Assembly: GCA_017525025.1 (NCBI GenBank)
Contig: JAFXUJ010000009.1
Location: 115,948 to 161,322 of the forward strand
Source: Elusimicrobiaceae bacterium
GTDB lineage: Bacteria; Elusimicrobiota; Elusimicrobia; Elusimicrobiales; Elusimicrobiaceae
DNA length: 45,375 nt
Direction: 5' to 3'
This document shows positions 5,926-24,161 of this stretch, in pieces (within the stretch, counting starts at the first letter, position 1; each line of letters opens with the position of its first letter). The notes under the pieces are model-generated. The model was not told where the DNA came from. It saw only the letters and a list, made by a program, of their open reading frames with translations, and made no database searches. The position numbers and the translations under genes are program-made.

Positions 5926-6978
5926 TCATTTTGTGGCTCCATTTGCGACATTAAACAAGCTATTCGTATCCGGCATCTTTCTAGGAGTCATGCACATAGC
6001 CGCCTGTTGTAAGTTGGCAGGGACTAGGTGTGCGTAGATTTCTGTCATTTGGATACTGCTATGGCCTAGAAGTTTGGATACCTCATAAAGACCAATCCCT
6101 TTCTGCACCAACTGTGAGGCGTAAGTGTGGCGCAGTTTATGTAAATAACTCTTAACTCCGGCGGCCTTGGCTATTCTTGGGTAGTAAGATGTAAGAAAAT
6201 CTTTACTGTTGCGGCTAGATGCCCAGCCTACATCCACCACGTACTCGCTTTTCGCGCCATTTTTGGCCTTTGTGAGGGCTTCACGCAAGGTGGGGGTCAT
6301 TGGCACAAAGCGGTGGTTTTCCGTTTTGTCAGGGGCAACGTAGAGCTGATTGTGCTCAAAGTCCACATCCTGCCACTGTAAATGCGCTATTTCCCCTCTC
6401 CTAAGCCCTGCATCGGCCCCAAGTAGCACTACAAGCCGCCAACCTAGGGAAGGGCATGCCGCTAATAGCTTATCAATCTCTTCATCCGTATGGAAAACTA
6501 CACGTCCTTTTGGGGTTTTTAGCTTACCAACGGATTTCCATTTCTGCTCAACTGCTAAATCCCATTTTTCTGCCAGTCGCATAATGGCTTTGAGGGCTTG
6601 CATACAGCGGTTAATGTTATGCTTACCGAACCCCTCGTTAATCATAAACTCCTTCGTTCCTTGCAGAAGATTAGGGGTTACGTCTCTTAACATACGTGGG
6701 GCGTTAAAATCTTCCATATGCTTAATAGCCAGTTTAGTCCATTCAATCGTGTTTGCGGATCGCTCTGCGGACATAAAGCGAAACAATCGGTCTTTAAATG
6801 CATCCCACTCCATATCCACCACTAGGTTTTCCTTGGCTTTCTTGCGTCTGCTTACTATCTCCGCATACTTGTCTTTTGCTACTCTTAGGTTTGTGGTCTG
6901 AAGAGAAGTTCTCGAGCGTTTTCCGTTCGGTACTCTGAAATCGGCATAATATACGCCGTATCTTTTAATTAATGCCAT
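5926..6978 (-). CDS. int: Tyrosine integrase (phage site-specific recombinase)
   Basis: Catalyses integration and excision of the prophage between attP and attB. The 350-residue protein has a short Arg/Lys-rich arm-binding N-terminus (YADFRVPNGKRSRTS), a helical core-binding SAM-like domain (about 55-150) and a catalytic domain. Catalytic residues are visible: Arg in GLRRGEIAHLQW (about 193), His280-x-x-Arg283 in LHKLRHTYAS, His306 in LLGHSS and the nucleophile Tyr315 in TEIYAHL. I start it at the ATG at 6978, which has AAGGAG upstream, rather than a TTG at 7002. It is the leftmost phage gene and points out of the phage genome, as is usual beside attL. Confidence 0.92.
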   Translation of the reverse strand: MALIKRYGVYYADFRVPNGKRSRTSLQTTNLRVAKDKYAEIVSRRKKAKENLVVDMEWDAFKDRLFRFMSAERSANTIEWTKLAIKHMEDFNAPRMLRDVTPNLLQGTKEFMINEGFGKHNINRCMQALKAIMRLAEKWDLAVEQKWKSVGKLKTPKGRVVFHTDEEIDKLLAACPSLGWRLVVLLGADAGLRRGEIAHLQWQDVDFEHNQLYVAPDKTENHRFVPMTPTLREALTKAKNGAKSEYVVDVGWASSRNSKDFLTSYYPRIAKAAGVKSYLHKLRHTYASQLVQKGIGLYEVSKLLGHSSIQMTEIYAHLVPANLQQAAMCMTPRKMPDTNSLFNVANGATK

Positions 6979-7106
6979 CTGTCTGTTCTCCTTACTAAGC
7001 AAAGTCGAACTCTGCGTCGTAGGAACATAGTAACTCTTCTTTAAAAGAAAAGCATGAAATTACGTCCAGTATATTATGAAATTCAGAAACTCTCGTCGGT
7101 GGGGTT

Positions 7107-7526
7107 TTAGAAAAGGGTTTCCAAATCAGTAAGGTTTTCTATGTCTATTTGAGTGCCATCCGTAAAGATAAGTAAATGGCGGTAGAGGTCTATTTTCTTT
7201 ACTTGTCCCGTCTTAGTTTGGTATTCGCCACCTTCTTTTAACTCATCTTCCACGAAGTATTTGACAGTTACTTCCGGTGGAAACTCCGATACAGTCAGCT
7301 CTTGGGCCAGTTGGGACAACTTATCATTTATGATATTCTTTTCGCTTTCGTCCAATTCTTTCCTGCGTGTGGTCTTGCGTGCGGTTTCTTGTATCCCCTC
7401 TTCAAACCCACTCAAAGCGGCAAAAGGCGCAAATTGGGCAGCTCGGTCAAGCAGAGACATAGGTGCGTGCCGTTTAGATACCGGACGTGACAGGTTGATA
7501 ATATCTTTGTATTGTGAATCGCTCAT
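7107..7526 (-). CDS. YolD-like protein
   Basis: A 139-residue YolD-family protein. The conserved core is clear: DIINLSRPVSKRHAPMSLLD, then RAAQFAPFAALSGFEEGI, then an ETAR...ELDE segment. In Firmicutes, YolD-like proteins are encoded beside UvrX/UmuC-type Y-family polymerases on mobile elements, and are thought to act as a partner or substitute for UmuD. The gene overlaps the polymerase stop codon by four bases (ATGA), so the two are coupled. The C-terminal part (VTVKYFVEDELKEGG, QIDIENLTDL) looks like a small beta-domain. The precise role is unknown even in the family. Confidence 0.85.
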   Translation of the reverse strand: MSDSQYKDIINLSRPVSKRHAPMSLLDRAAQFAPFAALSGFEEGIQETARKTTRRKELDESEKNIINDKLSQLAQELTVSEFPPEVTVKYFVEDELKEGGEYQTKTGQVKKIDLYRHLLIFTDGTQIDIENLTDLETLF

Positions 7527-9049
7527 GCTTTGTGTCCACCTATTTGCTTATTACGCTCTATGGCTTTTGCACCTTTTTGTAGATTCATTCCACGTACAAT
7601 GGCATTCTTACCAAACTGTTCTTTAATGTCTAAAATCGTTTCTTGTAAATCATGCTCTCTTTGGAGTTCTTCTTTCTCTTCGGCCTTTTGCTTTGCTAAT
7701 GCTTCGTAGTCCGTAAATAAATCCAACTGCTCCGCCGTAGGCATTACCTCTGCTTGGCTGGCCGGAACTACTCTACCTGCAGTAACATAAATCTTCCGAA
7801 CGGTTAGATGCTCGTCTACGATTTTTACATACAGTTGGCTCATAGCTTCCATGATAATCTTGGTAGACGAGGTAAAGTTATCAAGGGTTACACTCCCATG
7901 GGCAGGTTTTGGCATCTTGCGACCATATCTATCCATTACTATCGGTCCTTTATAACCACGTGCGATAGAGGGATTAGTAAGGTTTTCCGTATCATAGTCC
8001 ACCGTAAGAACAAGTTGATCTGTTACCAGTCCTTTTTCTACTAGGTCTAGCACGAGCGAATCCGTCATTTCCCGAGTGATTAAACGCCCTTCTTCATACT
8101 TATATGGTCTATCTAATACCTGACCGGAACCTAAACTATGGCCGGATGGACGATAGGCTTTTATTTCTTTCATGGTGCAGGGCTCAATACCCCAAGCATG
8201 GTCTATCAGCAACTCGGCGTTTATCCCAAAGGTTTTATAGAGTAATTCTTCGTTGTAATATTCGTCGTCTTTGCCCATGGAACATCTTGCCACGTCTCCC
8301 ATGGTATAGAGGCCTATCTTCTCCAATCTTTCGGCTATCCCATGTCCTACTCGCCAAAAATCTGTAATCGGGGTATGAGACCATAGTTGCTCTTTATAGG
8401 CCTGTTCCGTTAGCTCCGCAATACGCACTCCGTCTTTATCCGCAGGTATATGTTTGGCCACAATATCCATAGCCACTTTCGCTAGATATAGGTTCGTCCC
8501 TATTCCGGCAGTAGCGGTTATCCCCGTAGCTTGTAAAACCTCTCGTATTAACTTAATGGCAAACTCGTGTGCGGTTAATTTGTAGTGCTTTAGGTAATCC
8601 GTAGCATCTATAAATACCTCATCTACCGAGTAGTTGTGGATATCTTCCGGTGCGACATACTTGAGGTAAATATCATAAATCTGATTACTAATCTCCATGT
8701 ACTTTGCCATTTGGGGTGGTGCGGCTATGTAATCCACCGCAAGGCTGGGGTTGGCTACCAGTTCCTCAAAGTTATGGGATTTGCCTGTTAGACGGCGATT
8801 TGGCGCATTTAATTGGCGTTTACGGTTAACTTCCTTGACCTTTTGCACAACCTTAAATAACCTCGCTCTTCCGCCAATACCAAAGGTTTTTAGAGACGGA
8901 GACACAGCAAGGCAGATAGTTTTTTCCGTACGGCTTGTATCCGCCACTATCAAGTTCGTAGTAAGTGGGTTTAGCTTACGCTGGACACACTCCACAGATG
9001 CGTAAAATGACTTGAGGTCTATTGCGATGTAGGATTTTTGCTTTGCCAT
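7523..9049 (-). CDS. Y-family translesion DNA polymerase (UvrX/UmuC type)
   Basis: Error-prone lesion-bypass polymerase. The palm motif AIDLKSFYASVE (catalytic Asp11) and the second metal motif YSVDEVFIDAT (Asp143-Glu144) are intact. The thumb helix-hairpin-helix region follows (VGHGIAERLEKIGLYTMGDV), then the little-finger domain with SHNF-like and GHSLGSGQVLD segments. About 508 residues, long for DinB but normal for UvrX-like enzymes of mobile elements. Start choice is uncertain: I use the ATG at 9049 (MAKQKSYIAIDL), since family members begin within a few residues of IAIDLKSF; an ATG at 9058 and a TTG at 9106 are alternatives and none has a clear ribosome site. With YolD it forms a mutagenesis pair likely to be damage-induced, though no LexA box was identified. 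Confidence 0.9.
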   Translation of the reverse strand: MAKQKSYIAIDLKSFYASVECVQRKLNPLTTNLIVADTSRTEKTICLAVSPSLKTFGIGGRARLFKVVQKVKEVNRKRQLNAPNRRLTGKSHNFEELVANPSLAVDYIAAPPQMAKYMEISNQIYDIYLKYVAPEDIHNYSVDEVFIDATDYLKHYKLTAHEFAIKLIREVLQATGITATAGIGTNLYLAKVAMDIVAKHIPADKDGVRIAELTEQAYKEQLWSHTPITDFWRVGHGIAERLEKIGLYTMGDVARCSMGKDDEYYNEELLYKTFGINAELLIDHAWGIEPCTMKEIKAYRPSGHSLGSGQVLDRPYKYEEGRLITREMTDSLVLDLVEKGLVTDQLVLTVDYDTENLTNPSIARGYKGPIVMDRYGRKMPKPAHGSVTLDNFTSSTKIIMEAMSQLYVKIVDEHLTVRKIYVTAGRVVPASQAEVMPTAEQLDLFTDYEALAKQKAEEKEELQREHDLQETILDIKEQFGKNAIVRGMNLQKGAKAIERNKQIGGHKA

Positions 9050-9284
9050 TACTACCATTTTAGCATTAACTAAAACGCTTTTCTCAATAAAGCCAATAGA
9101 ATACAACTTTTCTAAATCATGTAACAGTCAAAAAATTTTATCAATTTCGATATTCTCTAAATACAAAAAATGTAGAAAAATATAGAAAAGTTATATACAA
9201 AAATTTGACGAAGGGCCTCTTAATTGGTACACTCTAATGAGAAAAAGTGTAGCAATCTACAAAAAAATCAGTTATAAGGATAAT

Positions 9285-10592
9285 ATGATTGAAAGAGCCA
9301 AGTATTTAAATTTATTAATTAAAAGCAGAGATAATGGGTTTCCCAAAGTCATAACAGGTATCAGAAGATGTGGTAAATCCTATTTGCTAAAAGACATTTT
9401 CCGCAACTATCTGATTAACTCCGGCGTTGATGAAAAAGAGATTCTTTTGATAGAACTTGACGATGAAAAAAACAGTAGATTAAGAGACCCACTTGAGCTC
9501 GGCGAATATGTTCGAAAGTATTGTTCTGCCTTCAAGAAGTGCTATGTGTTTCTTGATGAGATACAAAGGGTATATACAATAGTAAACCCTAATTTAACAG
9601 CTGGCAACCATGTCTTGGCCACCAAGGGAGATACCGAGGTTATTTCATTCGTGGATGTAATACTTGGATTATCACATGAGAAGAATATTGACCTCTATGT
9701 GACGGGTTCCAATTCCAAAATGCTGTCTTCCGACATAATTACCGAATTTAGAGATAAGGCAACTAATATCAGTCTTAATCCTCTTTCTTTTGAAGAATTT
9801 TATGGCTACAGGGGTGGTTCTAAAAACGATGCTGTCTTTGAATATATGCAATACGGTGGAATGCCACTTGCAGTTGTAAAAGAGGAAACGGAAAAGAGGA
9901 AATATTTAAAAGATTTATTTGAGACGACTTACTTTAAGGATATTATTGAACATAACAAACTTAGACGATCTGAATCGTTGGAAGAACTTTGTAATATTTT
10001 AAGCGGTTCAGTTGGAAACTTGATAAATTCAGAAAAAATCGCCAATACTTATCAAAGTATCAAGAAGGAAAAAATCGAAAAAAACCTAGTCGACAAATAT
10101 ATATCGCATTTTGTAGATGCCTTTATTATACGGGAAGCAAGAAGATTTGACCTGAAGGGCAGAAAGGAAATAGGTGCGCTCCGCAAATACTATTTTACAG
10201 ATACTGGCCTCAGAAACGCAAGACTTAACTTTGTTTTTCCTGATGAAGGACATTTACTTGAAAATATGGTTTATAACGAGCTCATATACAACGATTATGT
10301 GGTAAATGTCGGTTCGTTTGATTCAATAGAAAGAAATGCGGATGGGGTGTCTGTCAGAAAAACAAATGAAATTGATTTTTACGCGACAAGAAACACAAAA
10401 AAATATTATATCCAGGTTTCTGACAATATATCTAATGCTAAAGTAAAGGCTAGAGAAGAAAGGCCATTTAAATTATTGAGAGACGGTATACAACGAATTA
10501 TTGTTATCAATAGACCCATTAATGAAACGGTTGATGAAAATGGCGTTGTGATAATTGGGATTGCTGATTTCTTGCTGAGGTATATTAAATAA
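9285..10592 (+). CDS. AAA-type ATPase with DUF4143-like C-terminus
   Basis: A 435-residue member of the widespread ATP-binding protein family with an N-terminal AAA domain and C-terminal DUF4143. Walker A is GIRRCGKSY near residue 27 and Walker B is YVFLDEIQR. The sensor region is LYVTGSNSKML, followed by the family hallmark LNPLSFEEFYGYRG. The C-terminal part carries NEIDFYA and YYIQVSD, resembling the nuclease-like fold of DUF4143, though the usual second catalytic lysine is not evident. The start at 9285 has AAGGATA upstream; a start at 9237 would have none. The gene is visibly more AT-rich than its neighbours, stands alone and points away from the polymerase pair. It is probably acquired cargo. 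Family function is unknown; anti-phage or toxin roles are only speculation. Confidence 0.8.
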   Translation: MIERAKYLNLLIKSRDNGFPKVITGIRRCGKSYLLKDIFRNYLINSGVDEKEILLIELDDEKNSRLRDPLELGEYVRKYCSAFKKCYVFLDEIQRVYTIVNPNLTAGNHVLATKGDTEVISFVDVILGLSHEKNIDLYVTGSNSKMLSSDIITEFRDKATNISLNPLSFEEFYGYRGGSKNDAVFEYMQYGGMPLAVVKEETEKRKYLKDLFETTYFKDIIEHNKLRRSESLEELCNILSGSVGNLINSEKIANTYQSIKKEKIEKNLVDKYISHFVDAFIIREARRFDLKGRKEIGALRKYYFTDTGLRNARLNFVFPDEGHLLENMVYNELIYNDYVVNVGSFDSIERNADGVSVRKTNEIDFYATRNTKKYYIQVSDNISNAKVKAREERPFKLLRDGIQRIIVINRPINETVDENGVVIIGIADFLLRYIK

Positions 10593-11526: not shown

Positions 11527-12282
11527 TTATTTAACTAATTTGACAATCCAATTCCTGTACTCTTCCCCAACAGGCAAATCATAATTTTCCACTAATTTTC
11601 TGCGAGTGCAGGATTGCAGGGTATTAGTAACGTGGTTTAAGCCCTCTTTAGTGGTCTCGTCCCAATACAAAGCACTTCCGTATAACTGCCATTTGGGTAT
11701 GCTATTTATGTCCATGTTGAAGTGGGCTAACAACTCGGTTTTATTTCTAAAGGGCATATTGGTCAGCTCTTTGGCGGCATCCTGTGGGGTTTTACCGGAT
11801 GCCACAAGTTTATAATAGCAATGGGCCAATACGGAGTTCCGCGCAGAATCAGACTGTCTCCATGCAAAATAATCCTGCAAGGCATCTACATCCGGCAAAG
11901 GTATCATTCGGCAGTCAAAGATGGCATCTCTGCCGATTTCCTTGGAAAAATTGACACTCGTTTCTGCGGCGAGAATAGAGTTGTATTTGCGGACCTTACG
12001 GTTAAACTTATCAGCGTTGGGTTTGAACAGCAAGGAAATCTCGTCACTTTCGTTATATGCATAGGCAATTTGGAAGTAGGAGTTCATAAGAAAAGTCATG
12101 GTATTGATAATAGCTTGTCTAAACCGAATATCAAACGGTTTTTCCAAGTCCATATCTTCCTTGGTAAGTTTAGTGAAACCTTTGCCATCCAAACGGGCTA
12201 CCATAAAGCAGTCATCAGGAATTACTTGGTCCAAGGACTCCTCAAACTTCCGCATTTTTGTGTCAAACTCGTCAAACTTCAT
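11527..12282 (-). CDS. Thg1-like 3'-5' RNA polymerase (TLP)
   Basis: Member of the tRNA-His guanylyltransferase superfamily, which adds nucleotides to RNA 5' ends in the 3'-to-5' direction after activating the 5' phosphate. The 251-residue protein has the palm-like metal sites ARLDGKGFTKL (Asp32) and YNESDEISLLF (Asp80-Glu81). Where eukaryotic Thg1 has HINNLYN, this protein has ARNSVLAHCYYKL (about 147-159), which places it with bacterial TLPs that repair 5'-truncated tRNA rather than classical tRNA-His enzymes. I start at the ATG at 12282 because it overlaps the upstream kinase stop codon (ATGA); the longer start at 12297 adds only MGRNS. Translational coupling to the kinase indicates a shared task on RNA 5' ends. 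Substrate is unproven. Confidence 0.88.
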   Translation of the reverse strand: MKFDEFDTKMRKFEESLDQVIPDDCFMVARLDGKGFTKLTKEDMDLEKPFDIRFRQAIINTMTFLMNSYFQIAYAYNESDEISLLFKPNADKFNRKVRKYNSILAAETSVNFSKEIGRDAIFDCRMIPLPDVDALQDYFAWRQSDSARNSVLAHCYYKLVASGKTPQDAAKELTNMPFRNKTELLAHFNMDINSIPKWQLYGSALYWDETTKEGLNHVTNTLQSCTRRKLVENYDLPVGEEYRNWIVKLVK

Positions 12283-12755
12283 ACTGTTTCGTCCCATTTA
12301 CTAACTATAAAGTCGTTATTCTCTATTTTAACATAGTACAACTCGTCAAAATCTTCCGCATAGCTTGGCTGTTCTAACCGTTTTGCGGTGGCTAAAATGG
12401 CTTTTAGAGGTACTTGGACCTTTCCGGTGCGTTGCTTATTACGTTGCGAGCATTCTTCTATGGCAGACCGAAAATACAGTCCTACCGCCTTGTAGCCCTT
12501 GGCTTTGGCTAAATCTAAATATTTCTTGCGTTCAACCTTGGTAGGGTTGGTATTGTCCACCACGAAGGATAGCCCCTTTTTTAGGGCATTTTCAAGAGCT
12601 TTCTCCTCGTTACTGCGTGTATGTAATTGGTCCAAACTTATGTATTCATATTCAGGAAAAAACCTATGGGCAAAGGTGGTCTTGCCACTTGCCTGAATAC
12701 CTATAAGAATGAAACATGTGCGTAGATTTTTCCCAAATGTGAAATTAGCTTCCAT
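12279..12755 (-). CDS. Polynucleotide 5'-kinase (PNKP/T4 Pnkp kinase-domain type)
   Basis: P-loop kinase of 158 residues. Walker A is GIQASGKTT (19-27), followed by YISLDQL with a candidate catalytic Asp42. The segment VVDNTNPTKVERKKYLDLA closely resembles the DNTNP region of the kinase domain of animal PNKP, which phosphorylates 5'-OH ends of nucleic acids. The lid region RSAIEECSQRNKQR and the family ending (VPLKAILATAKRLEQPSYAEDFDE) also fit. There is no phosphatase domain. The start at 12755 leaves a normal N-terminus; no clear ribosome site exists for it or for a GTG at 12779. It is the first gene of a two-gene unit with the Thg1-like enzyme. A kinase that makes a 5' phosphate followed by an enzyme that activates and extends it is a coherent RNA-repair pair. 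Confidence 0.85.
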   Translation of the reverse strand: MEANFTFGKNLRTCFILIGIQASGKTTFAHRFFPEYEYISLDQLHTRSNEEKALENALKKGLSFVVDNTNPTKVERKKYLDLAKAKGYKAVGLYFRSAIEECSQRNKQRTGKVQVPLKAILATAKRLEQPSYAEDFDELYYVKIENNDFIVSKWDETV

Positions 12756-12848: not shown

Positions 12849-13349
12849 ATGCTAAAAGTCATTCAAGGGGATATAACCACACTTAAAGTGGATGCCATCG
12901 TAAATGCCGCAAACCATACTCTTTTGGGTGGCGGTGGCGTAGATGGTGCAATACATAAAGCCGCAGGGCCGGAATTGCTCAAAGAATGCCGCACCTTGGG
13001 TGGTTGCCCGACCGGACAAGCCAAAATAACCTCTGCCTACAACCTTCCCTGTAAATATATCATCCATACCGTTGGTCCTGTTTGGTATGGTGGAAATCAT
13101 AACGAGCTAAAAGACCTATTTAATTGCTACACAAACTCCATGCGATTGGCAGAAGTGTATGGTTGTGAAAGTATAGCTTTTCCCTGTATTTCCACCGGAG
13201 TTTATCGTTTTCCAAAAGAACAAGCCGCACAAATCGCTATAACCGCTATAAAACAAATATCTCCCTCATCAAAAACCATAAAGGAAGTGACTTTTGTGTG
13301 TTTTGAAGCAGAGGATAAGAATATATATGATAATCTGATAAAAAATTAA
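12849..13349 (+). CDS. Macro-domain ADP-ribose hydrolase (MacroD/YmdB type)
   Basis: A 166-residue single macro domain. Hallmarks are VDAIVNAANHTLLGGGGVDG (20-39), with the ligand-binding Asn and Gly loop, IHKAAGPELLKEC, TGQAKITSAYNLP, IIHTVGP and the second loop AFPCISTGVYRFP. Such proteins remove ADP-ribose from proteins or nucleic acid ends, or deacetylate O-acetyl-ADP-ribose; some yeast relatives act on ADP-ribose 1''-phosphate from tRNA splicing. The gene is divergent from the kinase-TLP pair across a short gap with a dyad, suggesting shared control. No ribosome site is visible before its ATG, unlike the structural genes. It ends at a strong bidirectional terminator. Link to RNA repair or to reversal of ADP-ribosylating toxins is inferred from chemistry and position. 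Confidence 0.88.
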   Translation: MLKVIQGDITTLKVDAIVNAANHTLLGGGGVDGAIHKAAGPELLKECRTLGGCPTGQAKITSAYNLPCKYIIHTVGPVWYGGNHNELKDLFNCYTNSMRLAEVYGCESIAFPCISTGVYRFPKEQAAQIAITAIKQISPSSKTIKEVTFVCFEAEDKNIYDNLIKN

Positions 13350-13418: not shown

Positions 13419-14093
13419 TTAAGCAATTATACGTTTGCGCTTCTTCTTTGGCGGTTTGTAGATGTTTATAATCTTTCCAACGATTTCAACATCTTCTATC
13501 TTTTTAGTAATTGTGCGGTATTTCGGATTGTCAGGTATCAGCTCTACCTTCCCATCGCAAATAAACATTCTTTTTATGGTGCTATACTCCTCCGAAATTC
13601 TAGCGAGCACAACATCTCCGTTGGTGGGTGTGACTTCCGGATCAATGATTACATAATCGCCATTATAGATAGAGGAACGCGGGTCCTTGGGATCTTCCAT
13701 ACAGTTTCCTTCTACTTTGATTGCGAATTGCTTTTCTCCGGATTTATTAAAGGGTATATAGCTTTCCACTTCTTCAAGAATAAATTTCTCGTTGGTGGCA
13801 GAGGAAATGCCCATCACAGGGATTAATTTAATATCTGTCGCCACCTTAACTCTGTGGATGTATTCTTTAGTAGTTTCCTTTTTTGTGGCAAGGAAATAGT
13901 CAAGGGGTTTATCCAAGATAGTAGCAATCTTTTGCAGGTTTTCAATACTGGGATTACGGTGTCCCATTACCCAGTAATTAACTTGGGCTTGGGTTATTCC
14001 CATTTCTCTGCCTAGACTAGCTTGCGACATCTCTGCATCACGCAAGGCGGCTTTTATTCGTTCGCCAATCTGATTTTTTTCTTTTTCAGGCAT
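13419..14093 (-). CDS. CI/LexA-like prophage repressor with altered peptidase site
   Basis: Maintains lysogeny by binding the operators at 14168-14224. The 224-residue protein has an N-terminal XRE helix-turn-helix (SQASLGREMGITQAQVNYW, about 23-41) and a C-terminal S24-like domain (about 90-210). In that domain the nucleophile motif, normally G-D/N-S-M, reads EGNCMEDP, so Cys131 replaces Ser; the general-base lysine is present in STIKRMF (Lys174). The usual Ala-Gly cleavage dipeptide after the PVMG segment appears replaced by SSAT. RecA-stimulated autocleavage may thus be changed or lost. The start has AGGAGA seven bases upstream. It ends in a basic tail (PPKKKRKR). It is transcribed divergently from the early operon. 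Confidence 0.88.
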   Translation of the reverse strand: MPEKEKNQIGERIKAALRDAEMSQASLGREMGITQAQVNYWVMGHRNPSIENLQKIATILDKPLDYFLATKKETTKEYIHRVKVATDIKLIPVMGISSATNEKFILEEVESYIPFNKSGEKQFAIKVEGNCMEDPKDPRSSIYNGDYVIIDPEVTPTNGDVVLARISEEYSTIKRMFICDGKVELIPDNPKYRTITKKIEDVEIVGKIINIYKPPKKKRKRIIA

Positions 14094-20301: not shown

Positions 20302-21498
20302 ATGTCGTCTGATGGAATTACTTTTGACCATAATAATTATCGCAAGCATAGCGATAAAAACAAATCCTTAATTCGTAAATCCTTAAAAGAGTGCGGAGCC
20401 GGACGTTCTATCATTACCGATAAGAACGGTGAGATTATTGCCGGAAACGGTGTATATGAACAGGCCAAAGCACTCAACATTCCTGTCAGAATCGTGGAGA
20501 CCGATGGGAGCGAACTGGTTGTAGTAAAGCGCACAGACCTTGCAACCGAGGACGAAAAGCGCAAAAAGCTCGCTCTTATGGACAATTCCACCTCTGACCA
20601 AGTGGAATGGGATTTAGAAAACATCTCTTCGGACTTTGCCCTTGAACAACTGCCGGAGTTTGGTATCGACACTTTACCACAAGCCGCACCGGAAGGTGAG
20701 CTTGTAGACCAAGAAGTGCCGGATGCCGAACAAGTGGAAACTCGCTGTAAACCTGGGGACATTTGGCAGTTGGGTAGACATAGACTCCTCTGTGGTGATG
20801 CCACCGTAGTTACGGACATGGAAAAGTTAATGGATGGTAAAAAAGCCGACATGGTTTTTACCGATCCGCCCTACAACGTCAACTACGGGGCCACCATGAA
20901 AGATACGCTTCGCAAAAAAGATGGCCAAAAATCTGCAGGACGGACCATCATGAATGACAATCTCGGCGATAACTTCAAGCAATTCCTTACGGATGCTTGT
21001 GCCAACATCGTAAATTTCTGCAAAGGGGCAATATACATCTGCATGAGCTCCTCCGAGTTACACACGCTATATAACTCCTTTGTGGAATCAGGTGGTAAAT
21101 GGTCCACGTTTATCATATGGGCCAAGAACACCTTTACACTCGGTCGTTCCGATTACCAGAGACAATACGAGCCGATTCTTTACGGCTGGCCGCAGGGTGC
21201 TAAACACTACTGGTGCGGCGATCGAGACCAAGCGGACGTTTGGGAATACAACAAACCCCAAGTAAACGACCTTCATCCCACGATGAAACCTCTCGAGTTA
21301 GTGGCTAGGGCCATCAAAAACAGCTCCCAAGCAAATGATATTGTGGCTGATTTCTTTGGCGGCTCCGGTAGCACACTAATCGCATGCGAGCAGTTGAACA
21401 GGGTTTGTTATATGTCCGAGTTGGATCCGAAATTCTGCGATGTTATTTTGACTCGTTGGGAAAACTTAACTGGGAAAGAGGCAACATTATGCAAATAA
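20302..21498 (+). CDS. ParB-like domain / DNA methyltransferase fusion
   Basis: A 398-residue protein. The N-terminus (1-110) is a ParB/sulfiredoxin-like domain (NNYRKHSDKNKSLIRKSLKE, then IIAGNGVYEQAKALNI) often fused to phage modification enzymes. The C-terminus is an amino-methyltransferase of the beta order: catalytic TDPPYN (188-191 DPPY) comes first, and the SAM-binding ADFFGGSGSTL (about 349-359) last, with HPTMKPLELV between. It would methylate adenine N6 or cytosine N4 in a specific site not readable here. No restriction enzyme gene accompanies it, so it probably protects phage DNA or alters host expression. It overlaps the SAM synthetase gene by ten bases. Confidence 0.88.
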   Translation: MSSDGITFDHNNYRKHSDKNKSLIRKSLKECGAGRSIITDKNGEIIAGNGVYEQAKALNIPVRIVETDGSELVVVKRTDLATEDEKRKKLALMDNSTSDQVEWDLENISSDFALEQLPEFGIDTLPQAAPEGELVDQEVPDAEQVETRCKPGDIWQLGRHRLLCGDATVVTDMEKLMDGKKADMVFTDPPYNVNYGATMKDTLRKKDGQKSAGRTIMNDNLGDNFKQFLTDACANIVNFCKGAIYICMSSSELHTLYNSFVESGGKWSTFIIWAKNTFTLGRSDYQRQYEPILYGWPQGAKHYWCGDRDQADVWEYNKPQVNDLHPTMKPLELVARAIKNSSQANDIVADFFGGSGSTLIACEQLNRVCYMSELDPKFCDVILTRWENLTGKEATLCK

Positions 21499-22508
21499 GC
21501 GAATACGTTTCGTTGGGACATCCGGATAAGGTGGCAGATTATATTTCTTCCTTCTTACTGGATAAATACATCCGTAAGGATAAGAACACCCGCTTTGCGG
21601 TGGAGTGTCAGATTAAAGGCAACGTGGTAAACTTAGCCGGAGAGATTTCTTCCAAGGCAAAATTTACCCCGAAGCAAATCAAGCACTTCGTCAAAATGGC
21701 GGTAGACCAAATCGGCTATACCAAGCACTATCAACGCTTTTGGGGCAAAGAAAACACCATCTGTGGTGCGGACTTAAAGGTAAATACGAACATTACCGAA
21801 CAAAGCCCTGATATCGCGCAAGGTTTGGACGGTTGGGGCGATCAAGGCATTTTCTTTGGCTGTGCCTATCCGCGCAAAGACTATGACTATTTGGAAGGTA
21901 CAAAATATCTCTCAACGATTATCGGCGAAGAACTCTACAAAGAGGGCATTGTCGGTAAAGATATCAAAGTCCTTGTGGTTAAAAAAGAAGGTCGGCTTGC
22001 CAAAGTAGTAATTGCCGCTCCGATATTAACCGGAAAGCAACTCGGCAAAAGCAAAGTATTAAACGATGTACGCAAAATCTGCGAGGATGCCGATTGTCCT
22101 CTTATTATCAATGGCACGGGGTTGTTCCGCAAGCACGGCCCGTTAGCGGATAGTGGTATTACCGGACGCAAACTCGTGGTGGATTTCTACGGTGGCTCTT
22201 GCCAAATTGGTGGTGGCTCCCCTTGGACCAAAGATGGGACAAAAGCGGACCTTACACTCAACCTTTACGCAAGATACCTCGCATTAAAGTTCTTAAAAGA
22301 CAACAACTTAAATGAGCCCGTATTTTGCGATATTGCGTGCTCTATTGGCAGACGAGAAATTGACATCTGCTTGCATGACGCGCATGGGGTGCTCTTCAAA
22401 CAATACAAAGAAGTTAAAAGCCCCAAAGAACTCATTAAATTCTTCAAACTGGACACTCCTATCTATGCGGAGCTGTGCCGGAATGGATTGTTTTCGAGGA
22501 TTAAATAA
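21489..22508 (+). CDS. metK: Phage S-adenosylmethionine synthetase
   Basis: Makes SAM from methionine and ATP in the cytoplasm. Family motifs are clear: SLGHPDKVADYIS (His11, Asp13), NITEQSPDIAQGLDGWGDQG (about 101-120), DSGITGRKLVVDFYGG (Arg227, Lys228) and GGGSPWTKDGTKADLT (Lys248, Asp254). These correspond to the catalytic residues known in E. coli MetK. At 339 residues it is shorter than the usual 380-400, and the PDxKSQVT segment is divergent (VKKEGRLAKVVI). The ATG at 21489 has AAAGAGG upstream and lies inside the methyltransferase gene, so the two are coupled. It likely raises the SAM supply for the adjacent methyltransferase or compensates for host SAM depletion. Confidence 0.88.
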   Translation: MQISEYVSLGHPDKVADYISSFLLDKYIRKDKNTRFAVECQIKGNVVNLAGEISSKAKFTPKQIKHFVKMAVDQIGYTKHYQRFWGKENTICGADLKVNTNITEQSPDIAQGLDGWGDQGIFFGCAYPRKDYDYLEGTKYLSTIIGEELYKEGIVGKDIKVLVVKKEGRLAKVVIAAPILTGKQLGKSKVLNDVRKICEDADCPLIINGTGLFRKHGPLADSGITGRKLVVDFYGGSCQIGGGSPWTKDGTKADLTLNLYARYLALKFLKDNNLNEPVFCDIACSIGRREIDICLHDAHGVLFKQYKEVKSPKELIKFFKLDTPIYAELCRNGLFSRIK

Positions 22509-22509
22509 T

Positions 22510-22911
22510 ATGCCCACAAAAAAGCAACTTGCCAACCTAGCAAAAGGGACTGCCACACGCTTTCAAGCAGGGAAGAAACAGGCGAGAATAGCGCGTAAAG
22601 GCGGCATTGCTAGTGGCGAGTCTAAACGCAGACAAAAAACTATGAAAGAGATGCTCGACTATCTCTTGGAAAAAGAAGTGGTCAACAAATCTACTGGCGA
22701 AAAGGTCACTAGTTTGGAGGCCATGATGTCGGCTGTTGTCCGCAAAGCCATAAGTGGGCATGTAGAGAGTTGCAAGTTTGTGCGCTCTACTATTGGGCAG
22801 GACCCTGTAACCAAAATACAGGAAATCGATCCTGTGGAGATTCTTGATGATACAGGAGACGAGTTATCAGTAGAGGTTACGGTTGAGAGCCGCCATAGTA
22901 CAAAAAAATAG
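22510..22911 (+). CDS. terS: Terminase small subunit-like protein
   Basis: A 133-residue basic protein placed directly before the large terminase. Its N-terminus (KKQLANLAKGTATRF, then KQARIARKGGIASGESKRRQ) is a lysine/arginine-rich stretch seen in phage proteins annotated as small terminase or DNA-packaging factors. A helical core follows (EMLDYLLEKEVV, SLEAMMSAVVRKAISGH), then a short acidic tail. Small terminase subunits recognise the packaging site and regulate the large subunit. The family is divergent, so position carries much of the evidence. The ATG comes one base after the SAM synthetase stop codon. Confidence 0.65.
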   Translation: MPTKKQLANLAKGTATRFQAGKKQARIARKGGIASGESKRRQKTMKEMLDYLLEKEVVNKSTGEKVTSLEAMMSAVVRKAISGHVESCKFVRSTIGQDPVTKIQEIDPVEILDDTGDELSVEVTVESRHSTKK

Positions 22912-22922
22912 GCAGGTTTGTT

Positions 22923-24161
22923 ATGCCTATCCGGATAAGGAACATTATAGCCCCTATATTTTACGGGGTATGGAGACAGATTAAAAGCAAAACCCACCGT
23001 TATACGCATTACTGGTTTAGCGGTGGGCGTAATAGCACGAAGAGCAGTTTTATCAGTATCGCTATTGTGCTTTTGATTCTACTGGATAGGGATGCAAACG
23101 CCATCATATTCCGCAAGGTTAAGGACACGCTCAAAACCTCGGTATATGAGCAGATATTATGGGCGTGCAACATACTCGGAGTTAGTAGTTATTTCCGGAC
23201 CACATTATCTCCTTTGGAAATAACCTATCTCCCAACCGGACAACGGATATTATTCCGCGGTATGGATGATCCAGCCAAGACCAAGTCCATCAAGTTACAC
23301 AAGGGCGCATTTAAGGTCATATGGTTTGAGGAAGCCGACGAGTTTTCCGGTATGAAAGAAATCCGCAAGGCACTCCAAAGTGTCATGAGGGCAAGCGAGA
23401 AGTTTTGGATTTTCTACTCGTACAACCCTCCGGCTTCTGTGAAGCATTGGATTAACAAAGAGGCCAAACATAAACGTGCGGATAAGTTGCAGATACATAG
23501 CACCTATTTGGACGTGCCGAAAGAGTGGCTACCCAAGCAGGTATATGTAGAAGCCGAAGAGTTGCGGTTAACGGATGAGAGTGCGTATCGCAATGAATAT
23601 TTGGGCGAAGTGACAGGTGTGAGCGGTTTAGTATTTCCCAATTGGGAAACTTTTACCGACGAGGAACGACCGGATCATTTCGATGATGTGATTTTAGGGT
23701 TGGACTTTGGGTTTAACCACCCGAGTGCGCTTATCAAGTGTCAGTTCAAAGAGAAAACCGTTTATTTAGAGGAAATCTTTTATGAGCGGCACAAAACAAA
23801 TGGCGAGTTGGTGGAGCTGATGAACGCACTAGGGGTTAGCAAGACGGTGGACATTATCGCCGATAGCGCAGAGCCCGACCGAATACGCGAGATGTGGAAT
23901 GCGGATTACAACATTCGCGGTGCAGTAAAGACGGATGTGGTAACGAGCATAAATGTGCTGAAGGGCTACAAAATCTATATCCACGCGGACAGCAAAAACC
24001 TGCAGAGCGAGTTTAGTGAGTACCAATGGAAGCAGGATTCTATGGGCGAGCCAATGGACAAGATAGAGCCCAACAAACAGCATGATGATGCCATAGCCGC
24101 AGTTAGGTATGCGGTGCAGTATTACGATAAACACGCAGGGACAAGTTTTATAACAGTATGA
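22923..24161 (+). CDS. terL: Terminase large subunit
   Basis: DNA-packaging motor of 412 residues, PBSX/phage SPP1-like type. The ATPase half has Walker A FSGGRNSTKSS (32-42), a glycine-rich variant usual in this family, Walker B VIWFEEADEF and coupling motif FWIFYSYNPP. The nuclease half has GLDFGFNHPSAL, VDIIADSAEP and KQHDDAIAAVRYAV, giving the RNase H-like metal-binding acidic residues. Length is normal. It overlaps the portal gene by four bases (ATGA). This strongly supports a headful or cos-packaging tailed phage, but the type of ends cannot be decided. Confidence 0.93.
   Translation: MPIRIRNIIAPIFYGVWRQIKSKTHRYTHYWFSGGRNSTKSSFISIAIVLLILLDRDANAIIFRKVKDTLKTSVYEQILWACNILGVSSYFRTTLSPLEITYLPTGQRILFRGMDDPAKTKSIKLHKGAFKVIWFEEADEFSGMKEIRKALQSVMRASEKFWIFYSYNPPASVKHWINKEAKHKRADKLQIHSTYLDVPKEWLPKQVYVEAEELRLTDESAYRNEYLGEVTGVSGLVFPNWETFTDEERPDHFDDVILGLDFGFNHPSALIKCQFKEKTVYLEEIFYERHKTNGELVELMNALGVSKTVDIIADSAEPDRIREMWNADYNIRGAVKTDVVTSINVLKGYKIYIHADSKNLQSEFSEYQWKQDSMGEPMDKIEPNKQHDDAIAAVRYAVQYYDKHAGTSFITV

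What the first reader, a model, noticed from the sequence alone, without database searches (positions are those of the whole stretch)
20302..22508. DNA methyltransferase translationally coupled to a phage SAM synthetase
The beta-order methyltransferase and MetK overlap by ten bases, so cofactor maker and user are produced together. MetK retains most catalytic residues but is trimmed and diverged in one loop. It may guarantee SAM for phage DNA modification, or counter host SAM-depleting defences. SAM synthetases are rare in phages.
Basis: partly seen in the sequence, partly recalled or inferred. Interest (0 to 1): 0.75.

Follow-up and report, generated by a model that had tools for sequence, protein, structure and literature searches.

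The report
Prophage SAM synthetase beside DNA methyltransferase
This bacterial virus carries its own enzyme for making the methyl donor SAM right next to an enzyme that should use SAM to mark DNA; the pairing recurs across many viruses and was suggested in print in 2014, but this version of the SAM-making enzyme belongs to a very divergent lineage found here only in viruses.

Summary
An orphan ParB-fused beta-order DNA methyltransferase (20302-21498) overlaps by 10 nt a 339-aa S-adenosylmethionine synthetase (MetK, 21489-22508), inside an apparent temperate prophage just upstream of the terminase. MetK is very probably active: all active-site positions checked are kept, the AlphaFold model matches solved MATs, and dN/dS is about 0.05 or less, like the terminase. 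Its short gating loop is no defect: the host's own MetK has a short one too.

In 62 dereplicated phage loci, 41 have a methyltransferase within 1.2 kb (31 within 100 nt), on either side and of several types, against 0 of 80 chromosomal metK loci. The overlap itself is ordinary (11 of 25 junctions in this phage overlap), so translational coupling is plausible, not shown. The host already has its own metK. The best reading is a private SAM supply for phage DNA modification.

A SAM synthetase feeding a nearby methylase was proposed for prophage Phi1207.3 in 2014 (PMC4260502). New here: this MetK belongs to a deeply divergent clade seen only in viral contigs and this prophage, with repeated partner and order changes, one lineage paired with a putative amino acid:DNA transferase cassette.

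The parts
20302..21498 (+). Orphan DNA methyltransferase, beta order, with ParB-like N-terminal part (about residues 8-109) and PF01555 catalytic part (183-382); DPPY near residue 188, FGGSGS near residue 352
   Evidence: the only PF01555 match found in the host genome
21489..22508 (+). Phage-type S-adenosylmethionine synthetase (MetK/MAT), 339 aa, phrog_1569
   Evidence: purifying selection
21489..21498 (+). 10-nt overlap of methyltransferase end and MetK start
   Evidence: conserved in L001-L003 and L146
21472..21481 (+). Shine-Dalgarno-like GGGAAAGAGG before the MetK ATG, inside the methyltransferase reading frame
   Evidence: sequence
22510..22911 (+). DUF5681 / phrog_2412 small protein next to the terminase (terminase small subunit is a guess from position)
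22923..24161 (+). Terminase large subunit (PF04466), showing that the pair lies in a phage genome
19020..19733 (+). DnaC-like helicase loader, upstream replication module
5926..7002 (-). Tyrosine integrase (PF00589), indicates a temperate prophage
13419..14093 (-). CI-like repressor with HTH and S24 peptidase domains

Best explanation
The prophage encodes a functional methionine adenosyltransferase whose job is to make S-adenosylmethionine from methionine and ATP during phage replication, so that the adjacent orphan DNA methyltransferase can methylate newly made phage DNA when demand for SAM is highest. Methylation probably shields phage DNA from restriction or marks it for phage-specific steps (inferred). 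Shown here: the two genes, their overlap, the intact active-site positions and fold of MetK, strong purifying selection, and the recurrent association with DNA-modification genes. Inferred: catalytic activity, co-expression, the SAM-supply role and the biological purpose of the methylation.
For: Active-site positions H14, D16, K17, E42, E55, Q98, D118, K165, F230, D238, R244, K245, K265, K269, D271 (E. coli numbering, from established knowledge of the family) are all identical in the window; all but F230 (Tyr in 20 of 23) are invariant in 23 phage-clade sequences. AlphaFold model mean pLDDT 93.6; Foldseek TM (query) up to 0.86 to solved MATs, E about 1e-28. dN/dS of MetK 0.045 (window-L003) and 0.005 (window-L001), like MTase 0.034 and terminase 0.041. 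Of 62 dereplicated phage loci 41 have an MTase within 1.2 kb, 31 within 100 nt, on either side and of several MTase types; 0 of 80 chromosomal metK loci do with the same queries. Independent test with Pfam PF01555 over whole contigs: combined P 5e-8. A second set of phage MetKs, placed with cellular-type MetKs in the tree, is also near MTases: PMF329 -8 nt, Javan630 -11, NatCom_35866 -11, and within about 0.6-1.6 kb Javan55, Javan159, Javan181, Javan320, Javan369, phi1605. Precedent for phage-encoded cofactor supply: CmoA making Cx-SAM for CmoX (PMC12783734).
Against: The host has its own metK with an open reading frame, so need for a second one is not shown. Homologous MTases are found in far more phage records than MetK (559 against 136), so MTases usually manage on host SAM. 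Nine of 62 clusters have no MTase nearby and seven pair with an ADDT-like gene instead. No activity, methylome or expression data.
Confidence: 0.75

Rival explanations
1. The prophage MetK keeps SAM available when the host enzyme is disabled or SAM is destroyed, for example by a superinfecting phage with a T3-type SAMase that degrades SAM and traps host MAT in filaments; the divergent phage MetK would escape trapping.
For: T3 SAMase degrades SAM and inhibits E. coli MAT by heteropolymer formation (PMC8406200). Phage-type MetK is only 31-34% identical to E. coli and host MetK and lies on a branch of 2.6 changes per site, so such an interface could be lost.
Against: Does not explain why MetK sits beside DNA-modification genes in most loci. 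No SAMase was looked for or tested in this system.
Confidence: 0.1
2. MetK feeds general host or phage metabolism (ordinary auxiliary metabolic gene) and lies beside the methyltransferase only because both occupy the variable region before the terminase.
For: A terminase-proximal position is shared by several phages here; the 10-nt overlap is ordinary (11 of 25 junctions).
Against: The association holds with the MTase upstream or downstream and of different types, re-formed several times on the tree; clustering is significant over whole contigs.
Confidence: 0.08
3. The phage-type MetK makes or prefers a SAM analogue, or serves a chemistry other than methyl transfer, used for unusual DNA modification.
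For: Clade-specific motif GGGSPWTKDGSKADLTLN replaces a near-universal phosphate-loop motif; one lineage pairs with ParB-like, ADDT-like (PF18724, E down to 1e-6 in single-record searches) and P-loop kinase-like genes.
Against: The checked active-site positions, which contact methionine, ATP and metal ions in E. coli MetK, are unchanged; in the window the partner is an ordinary methyltransferase. ADDT matches are below Pfam's curated cut-off.
Confidence: 0.06

Closest known systems
Streptococcus pyogenes prophage Phi1207.3 orf29 (SAM synthetase) with orf32/orf33 (ParB-fused DNA methylase and C5 methylase), PMC4260502
   Same: Phage SAM synthetase close to a ParB-fused DNA methylase upstream of the terminase; the authors suggest it supplies the methyl donor to Orf33
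   Different: Streptococcal phage MetKs sampled here fall with cellular-type MetKs in the tree; other genes lie between synthetase and methylases; also a C5 methylase
PHROG 1569 (unknown function)
   Same: Window MetK matches over its whole length, E 2.8e-69
   Different: The PHROG has no function assigned; here identified as MetK by active-site positions, fold and Pfam domains
CmoA-CmoX(-CmoY) of Synechococcus phage S-B43 (PMC12783734)
   Same: Phage encodes maker and user of a SAM-type cofactor for DNA modification; shown experimentally there
   Different: Makes carboxy-SAM from SAM by CmoA, a different enzyme from MetK, for a C5 carboxymethyltransferase
Campylobacter jejuni 'unusual' SAM synthetase (PDB 4le5)
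   Same: Best sequence match among solved structures
   Different: Cellular enzyme, 430-residue chain

Membership tests
Methionine adenosyltransferase (MetK/MAT) | Canonical active-site residues (E. coli H14, D16, K17, E42, E55, Q98, D118, K165, F230, D238, R244, K245, K265, K269, D271) | tested here: met
   All identical in the window; F230 is Tyr in most other phage-clade members
Methionine adenosyltransferase (MetK/MAT) | MAT fold with N, central and C domains | tested here: met
   Foldseek TM (query) up to 0.86, E 8.8e-29; Pfam N and C domains hit, central domain PF02772 not recognised by sequence
Methionine adenosyltransferase (MetK/MAT) | Makes SAM from methionine and ATP | not testable with these tools
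   needs an enzyme assay
Beta-class N6/N4 DNA methyltransferase | Motif IV (DPPY) before motif I (FxGxG), PF01555 | tested here: met
   DPPY near residue 188, FGGSGS near residue 352; PF01555 1.8e-24
Restriction-modification system | Cognate restriction endonuclease next to the methyltransferase | tested here: not met
   None recognised among the scanned neighbours; treated as an orphan methyltransferase
Phage SAM synthetase-methyltransferase pair (as in Phi1207.3) | Both genes close together in a phage genome, before the terminase genes | tested here: met

The most novel reading that the evidence does not exclude
Phage-type MetKs form an ancient, virus-only branch of SAM synthetases specialised for DNA modification, moving as a module between methyltransferases and, in one lineage, thymine-hypermodification cassettes in which SAM feeds a step other than simple methylation.
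Probability: 0.3. Interest if true: 0.65.

Novelty: new variant of a known kind. Interest (0 to 1): 0.42.

Why it matters
If confirmed, it would show that SAM supply limits phage DNA modification strongly enough for many phages to carry their own synthetase. It would give a function to a phage protein family filed as unknown (PHROG 1569), and make MetK a marker for finding DNA-modification genes in uncharacterised phages.

Tried and rejected
The genome-contig scan was swamped by chromosomal metK because one conserved pattern is universal; the loci were kept only as a negative control. Phage records of Acinetobacter phage MD-2021a and Staphylococcus phage UPMK_1 carry metK among bacterial genes and were rejected as bacterial DNA; the Salmonella houtenae record (691 kb) was set aside for its size and label without opening it. 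The idea that the short loop means loss of function was rejected after comparison with the host MetK. The 10-nt overlap as special evidence of coupling was rejected. A crude gene-caller permutation test (23 observed, 6.2 expected) was superseded by nucleotide distances and the Pfam-only test, because its gene calls were unreliable and its query methyltransferases came partly from the same neighbourhoods. H. pylori prophage papers that mention metK concern an integration site beside the bacterial metK, not a phage gene.

Full report
What is there. The window is apparently a temperate prophage: tyrosine integrase at 5926-7002, CI-like S24 repressor at 13419-14093, RecT, exonuclease, NinB-like and DnaC-like genes, then the pair in question, then a DUF5681 protein and the terminase large subunit at 22923. 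The methyltransferase runs 20302-21498 and MetK 21489-22508. The longest MetK ORF starts earlier, at 21384, but its homologues start at the position equivalent to 21489 or within a few residues of it.

MetK looks functional. Aligned to E. coli K-12 MetK (fetched), every canonical active-site position examined is identical in the window protein, and all but one (F230, Tyr in most) are invariant across 23 phage-type sequences. The AlphaFold model is confident (mean pLDDT 93.6), and all of the 50 PDB matches listed are SAM synthetases. The best sequence match among solved structures is the C. jejuni enzyme 4le5. The gating loop is short, but so is that of the host's own chromosomal MetK. Between the window and its close relatives dN/dS is 0.005 to 0.045, the same range as for the methyltransferase (0.034) and the terminase (0.041). 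Synonymous sites are near saturation in the 84-88% pairs, so those ratios are approximate; the closest pair (window-L001, dS 0.26) is not saturated.

The methyltransferase is a ParB-fused beta-order enzyme with no restriction enzyme recognised among the scanned neighbours, and it is the only PF01555 member found in the host genome. The host (1.55 Mb, 17 contigs) has one chromosomal metK. Neither an HsdM-type methylase nor a Csm1-type Cas10 was detected; other Cas10 families and other restriction systems were not searched. Of 61 genomes of the genus, including this one, only this one showed a match scoring clearly above the chromosomal copies.

Neighbourhood survey. Two scans of viral contigs gave 86 loci with phage-type MetK, 62 clusters at 90% identity. 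By nucleotide distance: 21 have a methyltransferase ending within 100 nt of the MetK start, 9 have one starting within 100 nt downstream, and 11 have one within 1.2 kb (one of these, L030, is really at -4 nt). Seven have a ParB-like gene and an ADDT-like gene downstream, 3 have a ParB-like gene and then the contig ends, 2 end too soon to tell, and 9 have none nearby. With the same queries, none of 80 chromosomal metK loci has a methyltransferase within the fetched flanks. Because the query methyltransferases came partly from these neighbourhoods, I repeated the test with the Pfam model alone on whole contigs: 14 records, Fisher combined P 5e-8 under uniform placement. It covers only records that hold a match, and records are not fully independent, so this is approximate.

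Evolution. In a tree of 80 MetKs the 51 phage-type sequences form one group, separated from host, other chromosomal and INPHARED phage MetKs by a branch of 2.6 changes per site with 100% support. Within it, gene order and partner change at least six times by parsimony; for example L020 (methyltransferase upstream) is sister to L006 (a different, motif I-first methyltransferase downstream), and L030 (upstream) to L040 (downstream). L004, 84% identical to the window MetK, keeps a 175-aa remnant matching the window methyltransferase, but beside MetK it has a short protein weakly matching another methyltransferase family (phrog_799, E 1.6e-6). Streptococcal, Erysipelothrix, Mycoplasmopsis and gut phage MetKs in INPHARED fall outside the phage-type clade, with or near cellular-type MetKs, and several also lie beside or near methyltransferases. 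The position of the Mycoplasmopsis sequence is unsure because of its long branch.

Overlap. Among 25 junctions read in the window's rightward gene chain, 11 overlap. The MetK start has its own SD-like sequence. Coupling is therefore plausible but not indicated by the overlap alone.

Interpretation. The most economical reading is private SAM supply for phage DNA modification. MTases of this type occur in many more phage records than MetK does (559 against 136), so MetK looks like an optional booster rather than a requirement. [quoted passage not shown] What I did not find described, within the open-access papers I could search, is the divergent virus-only MetK clade, its repeated partner changes and its link to ADDT-like genes.

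Noticed in passing
L014, L016, L018, L019, L027, L031, L034-L037, L169 downstream of MetK: Phage-type MetK followed by a stand-alone ParB-like protein, a ~226-aa protein weakly matching PF18724 (amino acid:DNA transferase) and a P-loop kinase-like protein: a possible thymine-hypermodification cassette (PF18724 not matched in L169 by the Pfam search).
   Followed up: partly
L015:7060-9069 and L033:2441-4459: A ~670-aa protein beside MetK; in L015 a methyltransferase domain is fused to a GNAT acetyltransferase domain (PF01555 and PF13673), and L033 has a close relative of the same length.
   Followed up: no
window 11527-12297 and 12849-13349: A Thg1-like tRNA-His guanylyltransferase and a macro-domain protein close together in the prophage's left part.
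   Followed up: no
window 9237-10592: AAA_14/DUF4143 ATPase matching PADLOC candidate defence family PDC-S01 (E 3.6e-102).
   Followed up: no
window 7523-9106: Y-family polymerase (IMS domains, UmuC/ImpB-like) near the integrase gene.
   Followed up: no
INPHARED records CAKLQH020000039 and MG543995: Bacterial chromosomal metK inside records labelled as phages; contaminates counts of phage MetK.
   Followed up: yes
PHROG 1569: PHROG family of unknown function that the window MetK matches over its full length; it can be annotated as SAM synthetase.
   Followed up: yes
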